In this document: positions 656-16,399 of the stretch, piece after piece
Numbering within the stretch: position 1 is the stretch's first letter
Layout of the letters: every line of letters starts with the position of its first letter
Assembly: GCA_023418835.1 (NCBI GenBank)
Contig: JAEZYW010000072.1
Location: forward strand, 1-16,399
DNA length: 16,399 bases
DNA from: Bacillota bacterium
GTDB taxonomy: Bacteria; Bacillota; Clostridia; Tissierellales; Peptoniphilaceae
Reading direction: 5' to 3'
Notes under the pieces: model-generated
Seen by the model: the letters and a program-made list of their open reading frames with translations, nothing else
Told to the model about the DNA's origin: nothing
Databases searched by the model: none
Made by a program: the position numbers and the translations under genes

Positions 656-667
656 ATGGAGGTAGTT

Positions 668-1183
668 ATGGAAAATTCACTTCACTCGAAGATTGCAAAA
701 GAAAAGTTAACAATTTTATATATAATAAAAAAATCCAACTATACGCTTACCTATAATAATCTATCAAATTTGATTTTAGAATACAATTTAATAAATTATT
801 TTGAGTTTGTAGAATATTTTAACGAGTTGAGTAATTCTAATTTTATCGAAAATAGAAATGGACCTCAGATAAAACTTACAGATTTTTCTTTACAAACCTT
901 GGAGCTCCTTGAAGGTGCAATTGACAAAGATGTTAAAGATGAAGTTGATTTCATTTTTTCCTCTGATCCTAATAAAAGAGTTGAACTAAGTGAGTTTCAA
1001 CTTGTTCCTTTGGAAAATGGGAATTGCATTGTTAAGTTAAGTGTTAAAGGTGATCTAGACGAAAACTTTTTGATGGAATTTACAGTAGAAAATATTGAAG
1101 AGGGTAAGAAAATAGAAAGTTCTTGGAAAAATAAAAACAAGTCTTTATATAGAGAGATAGTTAACATTATAAAAAATGCTTAG
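668..1183 (+). CDS. DUF4364 family protein
   Basis: This 171-residue protein matches my memory of DUF4364, a small family of clostridial proteins of unknown function. Its N-terminal half (about residues 5-75) looks like a winged-helix fold: KEKLTILYIIKKS, then NLSNLILEYNLINYFEFVEY and a short wing before ITL-like strands. A C-terminal alpha/beta part follows (about 90-171). The ATG at 668 is preferred over the in-frame ATG at 656 because GGAGG lies at 658-662, 5 bases before it. That assignment removes the first four residues of the longer reading. It is the only plus-strand gene seen here, divergent from a methyltransferase and convergent with valS. The stop codon (TAG, 1181-1183) lies inside the shared terminator. 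A regulatory, DNA-binding role is inference from the fold only. Confidence 0.8.
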   Translation: MENSLHSKIAKEKLTILYIIKKSNYTLTYNNLSNLILEYNLINYFEFVEYFNELSNSNFIENRNGPQIKLTDFSLQTLELLEGAIDKDVKDEVDFIFSSDPNKRVELSEFQLVPLENGNCIVKLSVKGDLDENFLMEFTVENIEEGKKIESSWKNKNKSLYREIVNIIKNA

Positions 1184-11677: not shown

Positions 11678-11956
11678 TTACGCATCATAAACGCTAACTT
11701 GCTTAGATTTTTTGCCCTTAGCTTCGAATTTAACCACTCCATCTATTAATGCAAATAAAGTGTCATCGCCGCCACGTCCTACGTTAGTTCCAGGGTGTAT
11801 TTTAGTTCCTCTTTGTCTTACTAAAATGCTACCTGCACTTACAAATTGTCCGTCGCTTCTTTTAACGCCAAGTCTCTTAGCTTCACTGTCACGACCGTTT
11901 CTAGAGCTTCCTACTCCCTTTTTAGAGGCAAAAAACTGTAAATTTAATTTTATCAT
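11678..11956 (-). CDS. rpmA: 50S ribosomal protein L27 (with cleavable N-terminus)
   Basis: L27 sits at the peptidyl-transferase centre of the large subunit. This 92-residue protein contains [15 protein letters not shown] and the [10 protein letters not shown] signature. The ATG at 11956 was chosen because AGGAGG (11965-11970) lies 8 bases upstream. The preceding in-frame TTG (11959) would add only one residue. The short extension KLNLQFFA before SKKG is the recognised Prp cleavage site of Firmicutes, with cleavage expected after the Ala. It lies 3 bases after prp and is followed by a terminator. Confidence 0.97.
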
Positions 11957-11959
11957 CAA

Positions 11960-12307
11960 TTACACCTCCTGGTAAATCAATTCTAAATACTCACCGTACT
12001 CATCTATTAAAGATTTCAATCCAATTTCAAAAAAATTGAAACCATCTTGAACTCTTTGATTTTTATAAATATTTTCACTTTCTATATTAATGGATAATAT
12101 AGATGATTCTTCGTTTTCAATAGCATGAAAGTTTAAGTTTTCCTGGGAGATATTCAATACCTCAAGGAAATAATTTGTCAAAGTAAATCCCAGTGTGGAA
12201 ACCGAAGCGCAGACTATGTCCTCACCTGGTTTTGCCATAAAAGCATGACCTGAGATTAGCAATCCAGTAAATACTGAATCTTTCCTAAAAATCTTTACTT
12301 CTAACAT
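11960..12307 (-). CDS. prp: Prp cysteine protease (L27 N-terminal processing)
   Basis: This 115-residue protein belongs to the YsxB/Prp family. The family protease removes the N-terminal extension of L27, which is required for ribosome function in Staphylococcus aureus (established). The catalytic residues are visible: His21 in ISGHAFMAKPGED and Cys33 in IVCASVSTLG. The ATG shares one base with the rplU stop (TAATG), and its end supplies the ribosome binding site of rpmA. It is always placed between rplU and rpmA in Firmicutes, which fits its substrate. The rest of the protein is not otherwise unusual. Confidence 0.95.
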   Translation of the reverse strand: MLEVKIFRKDSVFTGLLISGHAFMAKPGEDIVCASVSTLGFTLTNYFLEVLNISQENLNFHAIENEESSILSINIESENIYKNQRVQDGFNFFEIGLKSLIDEYGEYLELIYQEV

Positions 12308-12615
12308 TAGATAATTTCTGCTATTTCTACTTCTGTATAAGGTTGTCTATGACCTTGTTTTTTACGATAGTTTTTCTTAGCTTTGTATTTGTAGACAATG
12401 ATTTTTTTGCCTTTAGCGTGTTCAACTACTTTAGCTTCTACTTTAGCACCTTCTACAAATGGGCTACCAATTTTTACATCTTCCCCATCAGCTACTAAAA
12501 ATACTTTATCAAAAACGACTTTGTCTCCTGCTTCTGCATCAAGTTTTTCAACTCTTAAAACATCGCCTTTTTCAACTCTGTATTGTTTTCCACCAGTTTC
12601 TATAACTGCGTACAT
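12307..12615 (-). CDS. rplU: 50S ribosomal protein L21
   Basis: This 102-residue large-subunit protein binds 23S rRNA. The family start [14 protein letters not shown] and the C-terminal signature ending [15 protein letters not shown] are present. The ATG is preceded by AGGAGG 7 bases upstream (12623-12628). It is the first gene of the rplU-prp-rpmA operon, with its own promoter and leader RNA. Its stop codon TAA overlaps the prp ATG by one base. Confidence 0.98.
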
Positions 12616-12695: not shown

Positions 12696-12724
12696 ATATT
12701 AACATTATTAAAATAAAATGTCAA
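12696..12724 (-). promoter_or_regulatory. Promoter of rplU-prp-rpmA
   Basis: Minus-strand TTGACA (12719-12724) is a perfect -35. Seventeen bases downstream is TAATAT (12696-12701), preceded by TGT, which makes an extended -10. It lies just 7 bases beyond the scfB stop codon, with no terminator between. Confidence 0.75.
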
Positions 12725-12731
12725 TTATTTT

Positions 12732-14075
12732 TTACTGCTCATTTGCCAAAATGGAAATGGCGCACTCCACTCTTTTCCTCTCCATTTCGCATCCGATTTC
12801 GTAAGGTTTTAAGAAATCTCCATTATTAAAGTATGCGTTAGCATGGCAGCCACCACTGCAATAATATTTGGCAAAGCAACTTTCACATTCAGTCTTATTT
12901 AAAACATTAGCACATTTAAAATTATCTCTAAGTTCTAGATTGGTAATTCCCTCGTCCAATGTTCCCAATAAAAACTCTTTTTCCCCCACAAATTGATGGC
13001 AAGGATAAATGTCTCCTTCTGGGGTAACTGCAATATATTCACTTCCAGCTCCGCATCCAACTAGCCTCTTTACTACACAAGGACCTTGGGATAAATCAAT
13101 CATATAGTGGAAAAATAAAAACTCTTTGTCTTTTTTTCTAATATCAATATACTCTTTAGAAAACTCCTCATACTCTTTTAAAATTTCTTCTAAATCTTCT
13201 TCCGTTAAAGCATAGGGTTCATCTGGATCAGTGACAACCGGCTCAATGGAAACTTTTTTAAAACCTAGGTCATAAAATTCTTTTAAATCTTTTCTAAAGT
13301 CCTTATTGAATTTAGTAAAAGTACCTCTAATATAATAGTCTTTTTCCCCTCTGGAATCAATTAACTTTTTAAACTTTGGAACTATTATGTCAAAGCTACC
13401 TTTTTCGTTTAAAGTAGGTCTTATAAAATCGTTAATTTCTTTTCTGCCGTCCAATGACAAAACTACATTGTCCATGTGCTCGTTTATAAAATCGATTTTA
13501 TCATCCGTTAACAAAACTCCATTTGTTGTAATGGTAAATCTGAAATTTTTATTGTAAATTTTTTCCAATTCTCTACCGTAGTAAACTAATTCCTTTACAA
13601 CTTCAAAGTTCATAAGAGGCTCGCCACCAAAGAAATCCACTTCTAAATTTCTTCTATTTCCAGAATTTTTCGCAAGAAACTCTAAAGATTTTTTCCCAGT
13701 TTCTAAGTCCATTAAGGTTCTTTCGCCTTTGAAATTGCCTTGTGCAGCGAAACAATATTTACACTTTAAATTACAATCATGGGCAACGTGTAGACACATT
13801 GCTTTTATTATATTCGTGGGATTGTAGTTAATTTCTTCGTAATTAGATTTTTCTGAAAAAAGTAATTCCTCTGATTTTAAAATTTCTATTTCTTCTAGAG
13901 CTGTCTCTATATTTGATTTATCGTATTTATTAGAATATTTATTAATTAGTTCTTCAGTGCTTAGGTTTTGAGAGTCTTCCAGAATATCATATGTCAATTC
14001 GTCGACGATATGAACAGATCCACTTTCCACATCTAGAACTATATAATTATCATTTAAAAAATATTTGTGTATCAT
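12732..14075 (-). CDS. scfB: SCIFF peptide maturase, SPASM radical SAM enzyme
   Basis: This 447-residue radical SAM protein is the partner of the upstream six-cysteine peptide. The first ~80 residues resemble the RiPP recognition element (RRE) that holds the leader peptide. The radical SAM core has CNLKCKYC with Cys101, Cys105 and Cys108 for the 4Fe-4S cluster that cleaves SAM, and a GGEP motif near 150-153. The C-terminal SPASM region carries Cys341, Cys359, Cys397, Cys400, Cys406, Cys410 and Cys429 for auxiliary clusters, with the CX2CX5CX3C signature at 397-410. Family members (CteB, Tte1186) form Cys-to-Thr thioether links on SCIFF. An AGGAG binding site is 5 bases before the ATG, directly after the scfA hairpin. 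Promoter and L21 leader of rplU follow without a terminator. Confidence 0.95.
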   Translation of the reverse strand: MIHKYFLNDNYIVLDVESGSVHIVDELTYDILEDSQNLSTEELINKYSNKYDKSNIETALEEIEILKSEELLFSEKSNYEEINYNPTNIIKAMCLHVAHDCNLKCKYCFAAQGNFKGERTLMDLETGKKSLEFLAKNSGNRRNLEVDFFGGEPLMNFEVVKELVYYGRELEKIYNKNFRFTITTNGVLLTDDKIDFINEHMDNVVLSLDGRKEINDFIRPTLNEKGSFDIIVPKFKKLIDSRGEKDYYIRGTFTKFNKDFRKDLKEFYDLGFKKVSIEPVVTDPDEPYALTEEDLEEILKEYEEFSKEYIDIRKKDKEFLFFHYMIDLSQGPCVVKRLVGCGAGSEYIAVTPEGDIYPCHQFVGEKEFLLGTLDEGITNLELRDNFKCANVLNKTECESCFAKYYCSGGCHANAYFNNGDFLKPYEIGCEMERKRVECAISILANEQ

Positions 14076-14089
14076 TTTATCTCCTAACT

Positions 14090-14112
14090 AAAAAGAAGTG
14101 GCTATCCACTTC
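14090..14112 (-). terminator. Hairpin between scfA and scfB (attenuator)
   Basis: A 7-bp GAAGTGG/CCACTTC stem with an ATAG loop (14095-14112) is followed by five T residues (14090-14094) on the minus strand. It begins 3 bases after the scfA stop, and its T-tract ends 4 bases before the scfB ribosome binding site. Compact intrinsic terminators like this give partial read-through. Confidence 0.7.
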
Positions 14113-14115
14113 AGA

Positions 14116-14265
14116 TTAGTTTCTTTCTTCATTTTCACACTTTTGATTTCCAACTGTGCATGATGTCTTGCACGCAGATTGACATGAAGTTTGGCATTCG
14201 CCACATCCTGCATATGAACGTGTGTCTTTTAAACTCTTTTTAATAAGTGTTTTAATATGTGTCAT
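14116..14265 (-). CDS. scfA: SCIFF six-cysteine ranthipeptide precursor
   Basis: This 49-residue peptide is too short to be seen without searching for it. It begins MTHIKTLIKKSLKD (leader, matching the SCIFF HIKTL start) and holds six cysteines at 21, 24, 28, 32, 36 and 43. The core reads GCGECQTSCQSAC followed by KTSCTVGNQKCE, the almost invariant SCIFF block. Thr37 lies five residues after Cys32, as in the crosslink reported for the Caldanaerobacter homologue (from memory). A GGAGG site (14271-14275) is 5 bases before the ATG, 11 bases after yajC. The product is probably a thioether-bridged peptide made by scfB. The physiological role of the family is unsettled. There is no exporter or protease next to it in the window. 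Confidence 0.95.
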   Translation of the reverse strand: MTHIKTLIKKSLKDTRSYAGCGECQTSCQSACKTSCTVGNQKCENEERN

Positions 14266-14276
14266 TATGTCCTCCA

Positions 14277-14555
14277 TTATTCACTGTGACTTTGGTTGTT
14301 TACTGTGCTAATTCCCCACTTCGTAAACTCTAACCTCGTTTTCATTCCACTTGTTTCTATTGTTACGTAATCTTCTTTTAGTAAAACGATGGTCCCAACT
14401 ATTCCGCCAATTGTGATTATTTTATCTCCTACTTTTAAGTTTGCACGCATTTCAGCGATTTCTTTTTCCTTTTTCTTTTGTGGTCTAATCATAAAGAAAT
14501 AGAAAAATGCAAACATACCTACCATCATTAAAATGCTATAATATTGTTGTGGCAA
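14277..14555 (-). CDS. yajC: Preprotein translocase subunit YajC
   Basis: YajC is a small inner-membrane partner of SecDF in the Sec system. The 92 residues show one N-terminal transmembrane helix (about 6-23, YSILMMVGMFAFFYFFMI) followed by the signature RPQKKKEKE. A soluble domain with LKVGDKIITIGGIVGTI comes next. The start is TTG at 14555, preceded by AAGGAGGG. The downstream ATGs fall inside the membrane helix. It follows tgt by 17 bases and precedes scfA by 11 bases. SecD and SecF are not in the window, although they often follow it. Confidence 0.93.
   Translation of the reverse strand: MPQQYYSILMMVGMFAFFYFFMIRPQKKKEKEIAEMRANLKVGDKIITIGGIVGTIVLLKEDYVTIETSGMKTRLEFTKWGISTVNNQSHSE

Positions 14556-14572: not shown

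Positions 14573-16399
<1,827 letters not shown>

What the first reader, a model, noticed from the sequence alone, without database searches (positions are those of the whole stretch)
14116..14265. Complete SCIFF ranthipeptide pair (scfA-scfB), with the precursor easily missed
The 49-residue peptide has six cysteines in the near-invariant SCIFF spacing (21, 24, 28, 32, 36, 43) and a matching SPASM maturase next door. Thr37 follows Cys32 at the spacing reported for thioether bridging in a homologue. The family is known, but its biological role is unresolved, and its placement in a core translation/secretion operon argues for a housekeeping rather than an antimicrobial role. No exporter, protease or immunity gene is adjacent.
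Basis: partly seen in the sequence, partly recalled or inferred. Interest (0 to 1): 0.75.

Follow-up and report, generated by a model that had tools for sequence, protein, structure and literature searches.

The report
Clostridial SCIFF peptide and its maturase
A tiny six-cysteine peptide gene and the enzyme that should cross-link its product sit behind a protein-secretion gene; the pair belongs to a known family whose core is kept almost unchanged among sampled relatives, which points to a housekeeping job that is still unknown.

Summary
Window 14116-14265 (-) encodes a 49-residue SCIFF precursor (TIGR03973, 80 bits, cut-off 50) beside its radical SAM/SPASM maturase, 12732-14075 (-) (TIGR03974, 684.5 bits, cut-off 425). 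It is a new member of a known kind, matched in 250 of 293 sampled genomes of the relative's class. One detail should change: Thr34 is invariant (181 of 181 cores) while position 37 is not Thr in 41 of 181, so the later Cys32-Thr34 bridge fits better than Cys32-Thr37. 'Role unresolved' omits a reported quorum-sensing link. Added here: (1) outside one 37-species clade, scfA lies with yajC and/or secDF in 120 of 142 loci; (2) where scfA and scfB have separated (25 loci, three clades), scfA stays there in 22; (3) a terminator-like hairpin follows scfA in 95 of 146 loci with scfB next, and in this window; (4) the core is more conserved than RuvB, Tgt or its own maturase (top-ranked sample). SecD is not found in the window's close relatives, so the pair probably does not need SecDF. 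A housekeeping role is favoured; the target is unknown.

The parts
14116..14265 (-). scfA, SCIFF precursor peptide, 49 residues, six cysteines
   Evidence: TIGR03973 80 bits, cut-off 50; PF13165 82.2 bits; translation
14209..14265 (-). leader part (residues 1-19), expected to bind the maturase's RRE domain
   Evidence: by homology to CteA/CteB as told in PMC8326336 (passages); leader mean pairwise identity 0.473 in 100 loci; inference for this protein
14134..14208 (-). core (residues 20-44) GCGECQTSCQSACKTSCTVGNQKCE with donor Cys32 and acceptor candidate Thr34
   Evidence: mean pairwise identity 0.89 over 178 loci; Thr34 181 of 181, position 37 T140 G39 S1 A1, Cys32 180 of 181
14270..14275 (-). 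GGAGGA ribosome-binding site of scfA, four bases before the ATG
   Evidence: sequence; reading by eye
14095..14112 (-). terminator-like hairpin between scfA and scfB: seven-pair stem, loop of 4, then TTTTT
   Evidence: folds at -9.9 kcal/mol but 18 of 200 shuffles fold as well, z -1.48; same kind of feature after scfA in 95 of 146 relatives with scfB next
12732..14075 (-). scfB, radical SAM/SPASM SCIFF maturase, 447 residues
   Evidence: TIGR03974 684.5 bits, cut-off 425; CteB 5wgg E 4.1e-169
13752..13775 (-). radical SAM CxxxCxxC motif (Cys101, Cys105, Cys108)
   Evidence: these cysteines are conserved in 146 of 146 aligned ScfB including the window's
12789..13079 (-). SPASM region with seven further conserved cysteines (333, 341, 359, 397, 400, 406/410, 429 region; eight positions in all)
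   Evidence: Cys333, 341, 359, 397, 400, 406, 410 and 429 are each Cys in 146 of 146
14277..14555 (-). yajC; its stop codon lies 11 bases before the scfA ATG
   Evidence: TIGR00739 80.6 bits, cut-off 44.2; spacing
14573..15691 (-). tgt, tRNA-guanine transglycosylase, upstream in the same orientation
   Evidence: TIGR00430 573.2 bits
15700..16399 (-). queA, cut by the window end
   Evidence: NF001140 340.1 bits over 15700-16398
12696..12724 (-). possible promoter for rplU-prp-rpmA, which would separate them from scfB
   Evidence: 10 of 12 consensus match, TG before the second hexamer; 25 such sites found against 19.1 expected, so weak

Best explanation
This is a genuine SCIFF pair. scfA is probably transcribed from the queA-tgt-yajC unit and translated right behind yajC. 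A hairpin with a T run after scfA probably stops most transcripts, so that the peptide is made in excess over its maturase ScfB. The leader binds the RRE domain of ScfB, and ScfB joins Cys32 to the gamma carbon of Thr34 (ranthionine), leaving five cysteines free or otherwise used. The product then does a conserved housekeeping job inside or at the envelope of the producing cell, most likely one that benefits from expression with the Sec accessory gene yajC, rather than killing competitors. Shown here: identity, conservation, gene context, the hairpin as a sequence pattern. Inferred from homologues: leader binding and bridge chemistry. Inferred only: stoichiometry, location and role.
For: Family models and solved homologue. 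All eleven radical SAM and SPASM cysteines plus Cys94 conserved in 146 of 146 ScfB. SCIFF matched in 250 of 293 genomes of the class of the close relative; in the 43 without it the maturase is found in only 3. Core mean pairwise identity 0.92 in 100 top-ranked loci against RuvB 0.715, Tgt 0.649, ScfB 0.548, SecD 0.461, YajC 0.406, and 0.89 over 178 loci including low-ranked ones; codons vary while residues do not. scfA near yajC or secDF in 120 of 179 loci, 120 of 142 outside one clade. Hairpin after scfA in 95 of 146 (scfB next) and 23 of 33 (not next) against 0 to 25% after ten neighbouring gene kinds and 1-2% in shuffles. Found in 64 of 70 genomes without Spo0A.
Against: No expression, mass or phenotype data for this organism. 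A mutant in C. beijerinckii is reported to change sporulation and agr genes (passages), which fits signalling. Gene order may persist by inheritance without a functional tie: the context changes 13 times on the ScfB tree, and one 37-species clade has left it altogether. SecDF is absent from the window's close relatives. SCIFF is missing in 43 of 293 genomes, so it is not essential to the class. The window hairpin alone is not unusually stable (z -1.48).
Confidence: 0.6

Rival explanations
1. The mature peptide is a secreted quorum-sensing or sporulation-timing signal.
For: Chen 2020 is reported to show that disrupting the genes in C. beijerinckii lowers sporulation genes and raises agr (passages of PMC8102284; PMC8326336 table lists 'Quorum sensing'). 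The original paper was not held.
Against: Core nearly invariant across 178 species loci, unlike what I recall of strain-specific peptide signals. Present in 64 of 70 genomes without Spo0A and 186 of 223 with it. No exporter or receptor found beside it in the window; none that I recognised recurs in 100 loci (families mostly read by eye). The same review reports no link with sporulation in C. ljungdahlii.
Confidence: 0.2
2. SCIFF is a factor of the Sec machinery: the cross-linked peptide binds YajC or the translocon.
For: Context with yajC and/or secDF in 120 of 142 loci outside one clade; when scfA and scfB separate, scfA stays there in 22 of 25 loci in three clades (14 of 15, 3 of 5, 5 of 5). 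In the window scfA starts 11 bases after yajC.
Against: SecD not found in seven close relatives that keep the pair. SCIFF in 52 of 70 genomes without a strong SecF match against 198 of 223 with one (my cut; not corrected for kinship). TIGR04086, the membrane gene often between yajC and scfA, does not track SCIFF: 183 of 250 with, 33 of 43 without. A 37-species clade keeps SCIFF away from these genes.
Confidence: 0.13
3. The peptide is an intracellular redox or metal factor, in the way that PQQ or mycofactocin come from peptides.
For: Six conserved cysteines of which one bridge is assigned (passages); anaerobic class; extreme core conservation.
Against: No partner enzyme recurs beside it (by eye); nothing here tests metal or redox activity.
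Confidence: 0.1
4. It is a bacteriocin.
For: antiSMASH-type surveys count it with bacteriocin-like clusters (PMC13289728, passages).
Against: No immunity or export gene in the window; 250 of 293 genomes carry it with a near invariant core; the same paper says the class lacks well-characterised antimicrobial activity.
Confidence: 0.03

Closest known systems
CteA/CteB, thermocellin, Clostridium thermocellum (PDB 5wgg, 5why)
   Same: ScfB aligns over residues 1-446 (E 4.1e-169); same kind of precursor with Cys32, Thr34 and Thr37
   Different: Different species; bridge shown there, not here. CteA's own sequence was not compared in a call.
Tte1186a/Tte1186, Caldanaerobacter subterraneus
   Same: SCIFF pair; first in vitro bridge, reported Cys32-Thr37 (passages)
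   Different: Not aligned here; comparative data favour Thr34
Freyrasin PapA/PapB and NxxcA
   Same: Ranthipeptide class, related radical SAM maturases (PapB model NF047865 matches ScfB at 269.2 bits, below its cut-off 340)
   Different: Other precursors and acceptors (Asp, Asn); not the TIGR03973 peptide, as told in reviews
Neofamilia massiliensis locus L001 and MAG locus L002
   Same: Same gene order queA-tgt-yajC-scfA-scfB-rplU-prp-rpmA-obg; ScfB 82% and 81% identical
   Different: Other species; the window's own genome is not held

Membership tests
SCIFF precursor (TIGR03973, PF13165) | score above the curated cut-off | tested here: met
   80 bits against 50; 82.2 against 27
SCIFF precursor (TIGR03973, PF13165) | six cysteines in about 45 residues with fixed spacing | tested here: met
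   CxxCxxxCxxxCxxxCx6C; exact in 180 of 181 cores of relatives, the exception having Ser at 32
SCIFF maturase ScfB (TIGR03974) | score above the equivalog cut-off | tested here: met
   684.5 bits against 425
SCIFF maturase ScfB (TIGR03974) | radical SAM and SPASM cluster cysteines | tested here: met
   CxxxCxxC and eight SPASM-region cysteines conserved in 146 of 146
SCIFF maturase ScfB (TIGR03974) | N-terminal RRE domain | tested here: inconclusive
   aligns from residue 1 with CteB, which has one (passages); no RRE model was run
Ranthipeptide | Cys sulfur joined to a beta or gamma carbon | not testable with these tools
   needs mass spectrometry or NMR
Bacteriocin gene cluster | immunity and export genes nearby | tested here: not met
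   none among the window's proteins matched; none recognised as recurrent in 100 loci (by eye)
Quorum-sensing system | secreted signal with receptor | not tested
   no secretion or receptor data; only the context was looked at

The most novel reading that the evidence does not exclude
SCIFF is a housekeeping peptide factor of the clostridial envelope and secretion apparatus: made in excess through a conserved hairpin after scfA, matured by a Cys32-Thr34 bridge, and acting on YajC or the SecYEG translocon, so that scfA keeps its place beside yajC even when its maturase has moved away and SecDF is lost.
Probability: 0.12. Interest if true: 0.85.

Novelty: new member of a known kind. Interest (0 to 1): 0.4.

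Why it matters
SCIFF is among the most widespread ribosomal peptides of anaerobic gut and soil bacteria, and surveys count it with antimicrobials. The comparative results here (near invariant core, Thr34 and not Thr37 invariant, scfA kept by yajC/secDF after separation from scfB, a hairpin behind scfA, independence from Spo0A) argue for a housekeeping role and give direct tests in laboratory clostridia.

Tried and rejected
Chance ORF: rejected by the family scores. The 53-residue start at 14277: less likely, since the ribosome-binding site lies inside it. Known RNA families: none at gathering scores in the window. TIGR04086 as an obligate partner: rejected; 183 of 250 SCIFF-positive and 33 of 43 SCIFF-negative genomes have it. 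Spo0A as a condition: rejected. SecDF as a condition: rejected by the window's close relatives. A recurrent exporter or protease: not seen in 100 loci, but most recurrent families there were read by eye, and a six-locus ABC-ATPase-like family on mixed strands and a nine-locus family were not searched. Structure prediction was not run, because a solved homologue exists and cross-links are not modelled.

Limits. The 293 genomes were drawn by the tool; completeness was asked at 90 but the answers give none. Loci were read for 180 of the 250 matched genomes: the first 100 of the 150 listed matches that lay over 6,000 bases from the contig start, and 80 of the 100 not listed. Of these L296 (decayed) was dropped from core, context and hairpin counts and L295 (cut by the contig) from core counts. 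Gene identities use the top-ranked 100 only. Context counts are by HMMs built here and distances of my choosing; contig ends were not excluded. For the separated pairs, 25 loci count where a full maturase was found elsewhere; L252 (partial maturase, scfA in Sec context), L139 and L269 (no maturase found, not in Sec context) were set aside.

Full report
What is there. The reverse strand of 14116-14265 encodes a 49-residue peptide with six cysteines. It reaches 80 bits to TIGR03973 (cut-off 50) and the neighbouring 447-residue protein at 12732-14075 reaches 684.5 bits to TIGR03974 (cut-off 425). Pfam agrees (PF13165, 82.2 bits). The maturase matches the solved SCIFF maturase CteB, 5wgg, along its length (E 4.1e-169). 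The window belongs to a relative of Neofamilia massiliensis, whose locus L001 has an 82% identical maturase in the same gene order (class Clostridia in NCBI's taxonomy). The window's own genome is not held.

Distribution. In 293 genomes of the relative's class, TIGR03973 matches 250, of which 248 are over the cut-off. In the 43 without a match the maturase is found in 3. TIGR04086 does not track SCIFF (183 of 250 against 33 of 43) and Spo0A does not either (186 of 250 against 37 of 43, Fisher p 0.12). A strong SecF match goes with SCIFF somewhat (198 of 250 against 25 of 43, p 0.006, not corrected for kinship; my cut gave 223 genomes where the tool counts 222 over the cut-off).

The peptide. 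Loci were read for 180 of the 250 genomes. Over 181 cores from 178 loci, Cys21, 24, 28, 36 and 43, and Gln29, Ser30, Ala31, Lys33, Thr34, Ser35 and Asn40 never vary; Cys32 is Cys in 180, Ser in one (L246). Position 37 is Thr in 140, Gly in 39, Ser in 1 and Ala in 1. On the ScfB tree the non-Thr residues form one clade of 37 species, so this is one event, long tolerated. Reviews report Cys32-Thr37 from in vitro work on two SCIFFs and Cys32-Thr34, through the gamma carbon, from co-expression (passages of PMC8326336; PMC8172795). The invariance of Thr34 favours the latter. It does not prove it.

Rate. In 100 top-ranked loci the 25-residue core has a mean pairwise identity of 0.92, against 0.715 for RuvB (21 loci), 0.649 for Tgt (42), 0.548 for ScfB (88), 0.461 for SecD (38), 0.406 for YajC (52) and 0.473 for the peptide's own leader; the core exceeds the other gene in 99.9 to 100% of shared pairs for each protein. 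Ranking by score favours consensus cores, so the lower-ranked loci were added: 0.89 over 178 loci, minimum 0.68. Codons in the core vary while residues do not.

Gene context. A frequent order is queA-tgt-yajC-(TIGR04086)-scfA-scfB-secD-secF, for example in L005. yajC within 3 kb upstream or secDF within 4.5 kb downstream on the same strand is found in 120 of 179 loci; all 37 loci of the non-Thr37 clade lack it, which leaves 120 of 142. The label changes 13 times on the ScfB tree. In 25 loci scfB lies elsewhere in the genome; scfA keeps the Sec context in 22. These are three clades: 14 of 15, 3 of 5 and 5 of 5, so the number of independent events is small. In the window's own surroundings SecD is not found in seven relatives (G001, G002, G029, G082, G179, G274, G289; weak hits at best), while G243 and G058, also near on the tree, have it beside scfB. 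So scfAB stayed with yajC after SecDF was lost; that the window's genome lacks SecDF is inferred. The rplU-prp-rpmA genes after scfB are seen in the window, L001 and L002 among the 83 loci scanned.

Expression. Between scfA and scfB the window has a seven-pair hairpin followed by TTTTT (14095-14112). Its energy is not exceptional (z -1.48; 18 of 200 shuffles fold as well). A terminator-like hairpin within 120 bases after the gene is found after scfA in 95 of 146 loci with scfB next and 23 of 33 with it not next. After neighbours it is found for scfB in 18 of 147, yajC 19 of 93, TIGR04086 2 of 70, tgt 5 of 79, queA 4 of 73, the SpoIID gene 3 of 30, ruvB 3 of 49, secDF 40 of 157, recJ 0 of 31, and the carbonic anhydrase-like gene 1 of 26; dinucleotide shuffles give 0.4 to 2.4%. 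A stricter intergenic count with a shorter minimum stem gave 79 of 135 for scfA-scfB (3.2 expected) and 0 to 14 of 56 in other gaps. An attenuating hairpin between precursor and modification enzyme is, as I recall, known from lantibiotic operons; for SCIFF a search for SCIFF with terminator and radical SAM found no paper.

Role. Passages of PMC8102284 report that in C. beijerinckii disruption lowered sporulation genes and raised agr, with no such link to sporulation in C. ljungdahlii; the original paper was not held. SCIFF in 64 of 70 genomes without Spo0A and the near invariant core speak against a sporulation or strain-specific signal as the general role. PMC13289728 (passages) calls the class ubiquitous in Clostridia and without well-characterised antimicrobial activity. 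The best reading is a housekeeping peptide of the producing cell; which process it serves is open. The Sec context is suggestive for YajC but not for SecDF. Searches for SCIFF with SecDF, SCIFF with YajC, and ranthipeptide with preprotein translocase found no paper in this library; the founding paper on SCIFF was not held, so the context may have been noted there.

Verdict. An ordinary, well-formed member of a known family, correctly spotted. The interest lies in the comparative pattern and in correcting the bridge site.

Noticed in passing
L280, L284, L287 (genomes G005, G102, G282): Two SCIFF units, each with leader-like part and core, fused in one reading frame of 95 to 112 residues beside scfB.
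   Followed up: partly
L246 (genome G197): Natural SCIFF with Ser in place of the donor Cys32 and Ser at 37, with scfB next to it; could be a sequencing error.
   Followed up: no
L296 (genome G279): Decayed scfA remnant with stops between the TIGR04086 gene and secDF; described only.
   Followed up: no
L139 (genome G084): Intact SCIFF peptide but no maturase above cut-off in the assembly; may be a gap.
   Followed up: no
37-species clade, e.g. L253, L225, L230: Loss of Thr37 and loss of the yajC/secDF context coincide on the ScfB tree; one event each, so possibly chance.
   Followed up: partly
window 656-1183 (+): Protein of the DUF4364 family (92.7 bits), the only long ORF with a family match found on the + strand.
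   Followed up: no
window 11678-12615 (-): rplU, prp, rpmA; L27 starts with an N-terminal extension, as expected where Prp trims it (expectation recalled).
   Followed up: no
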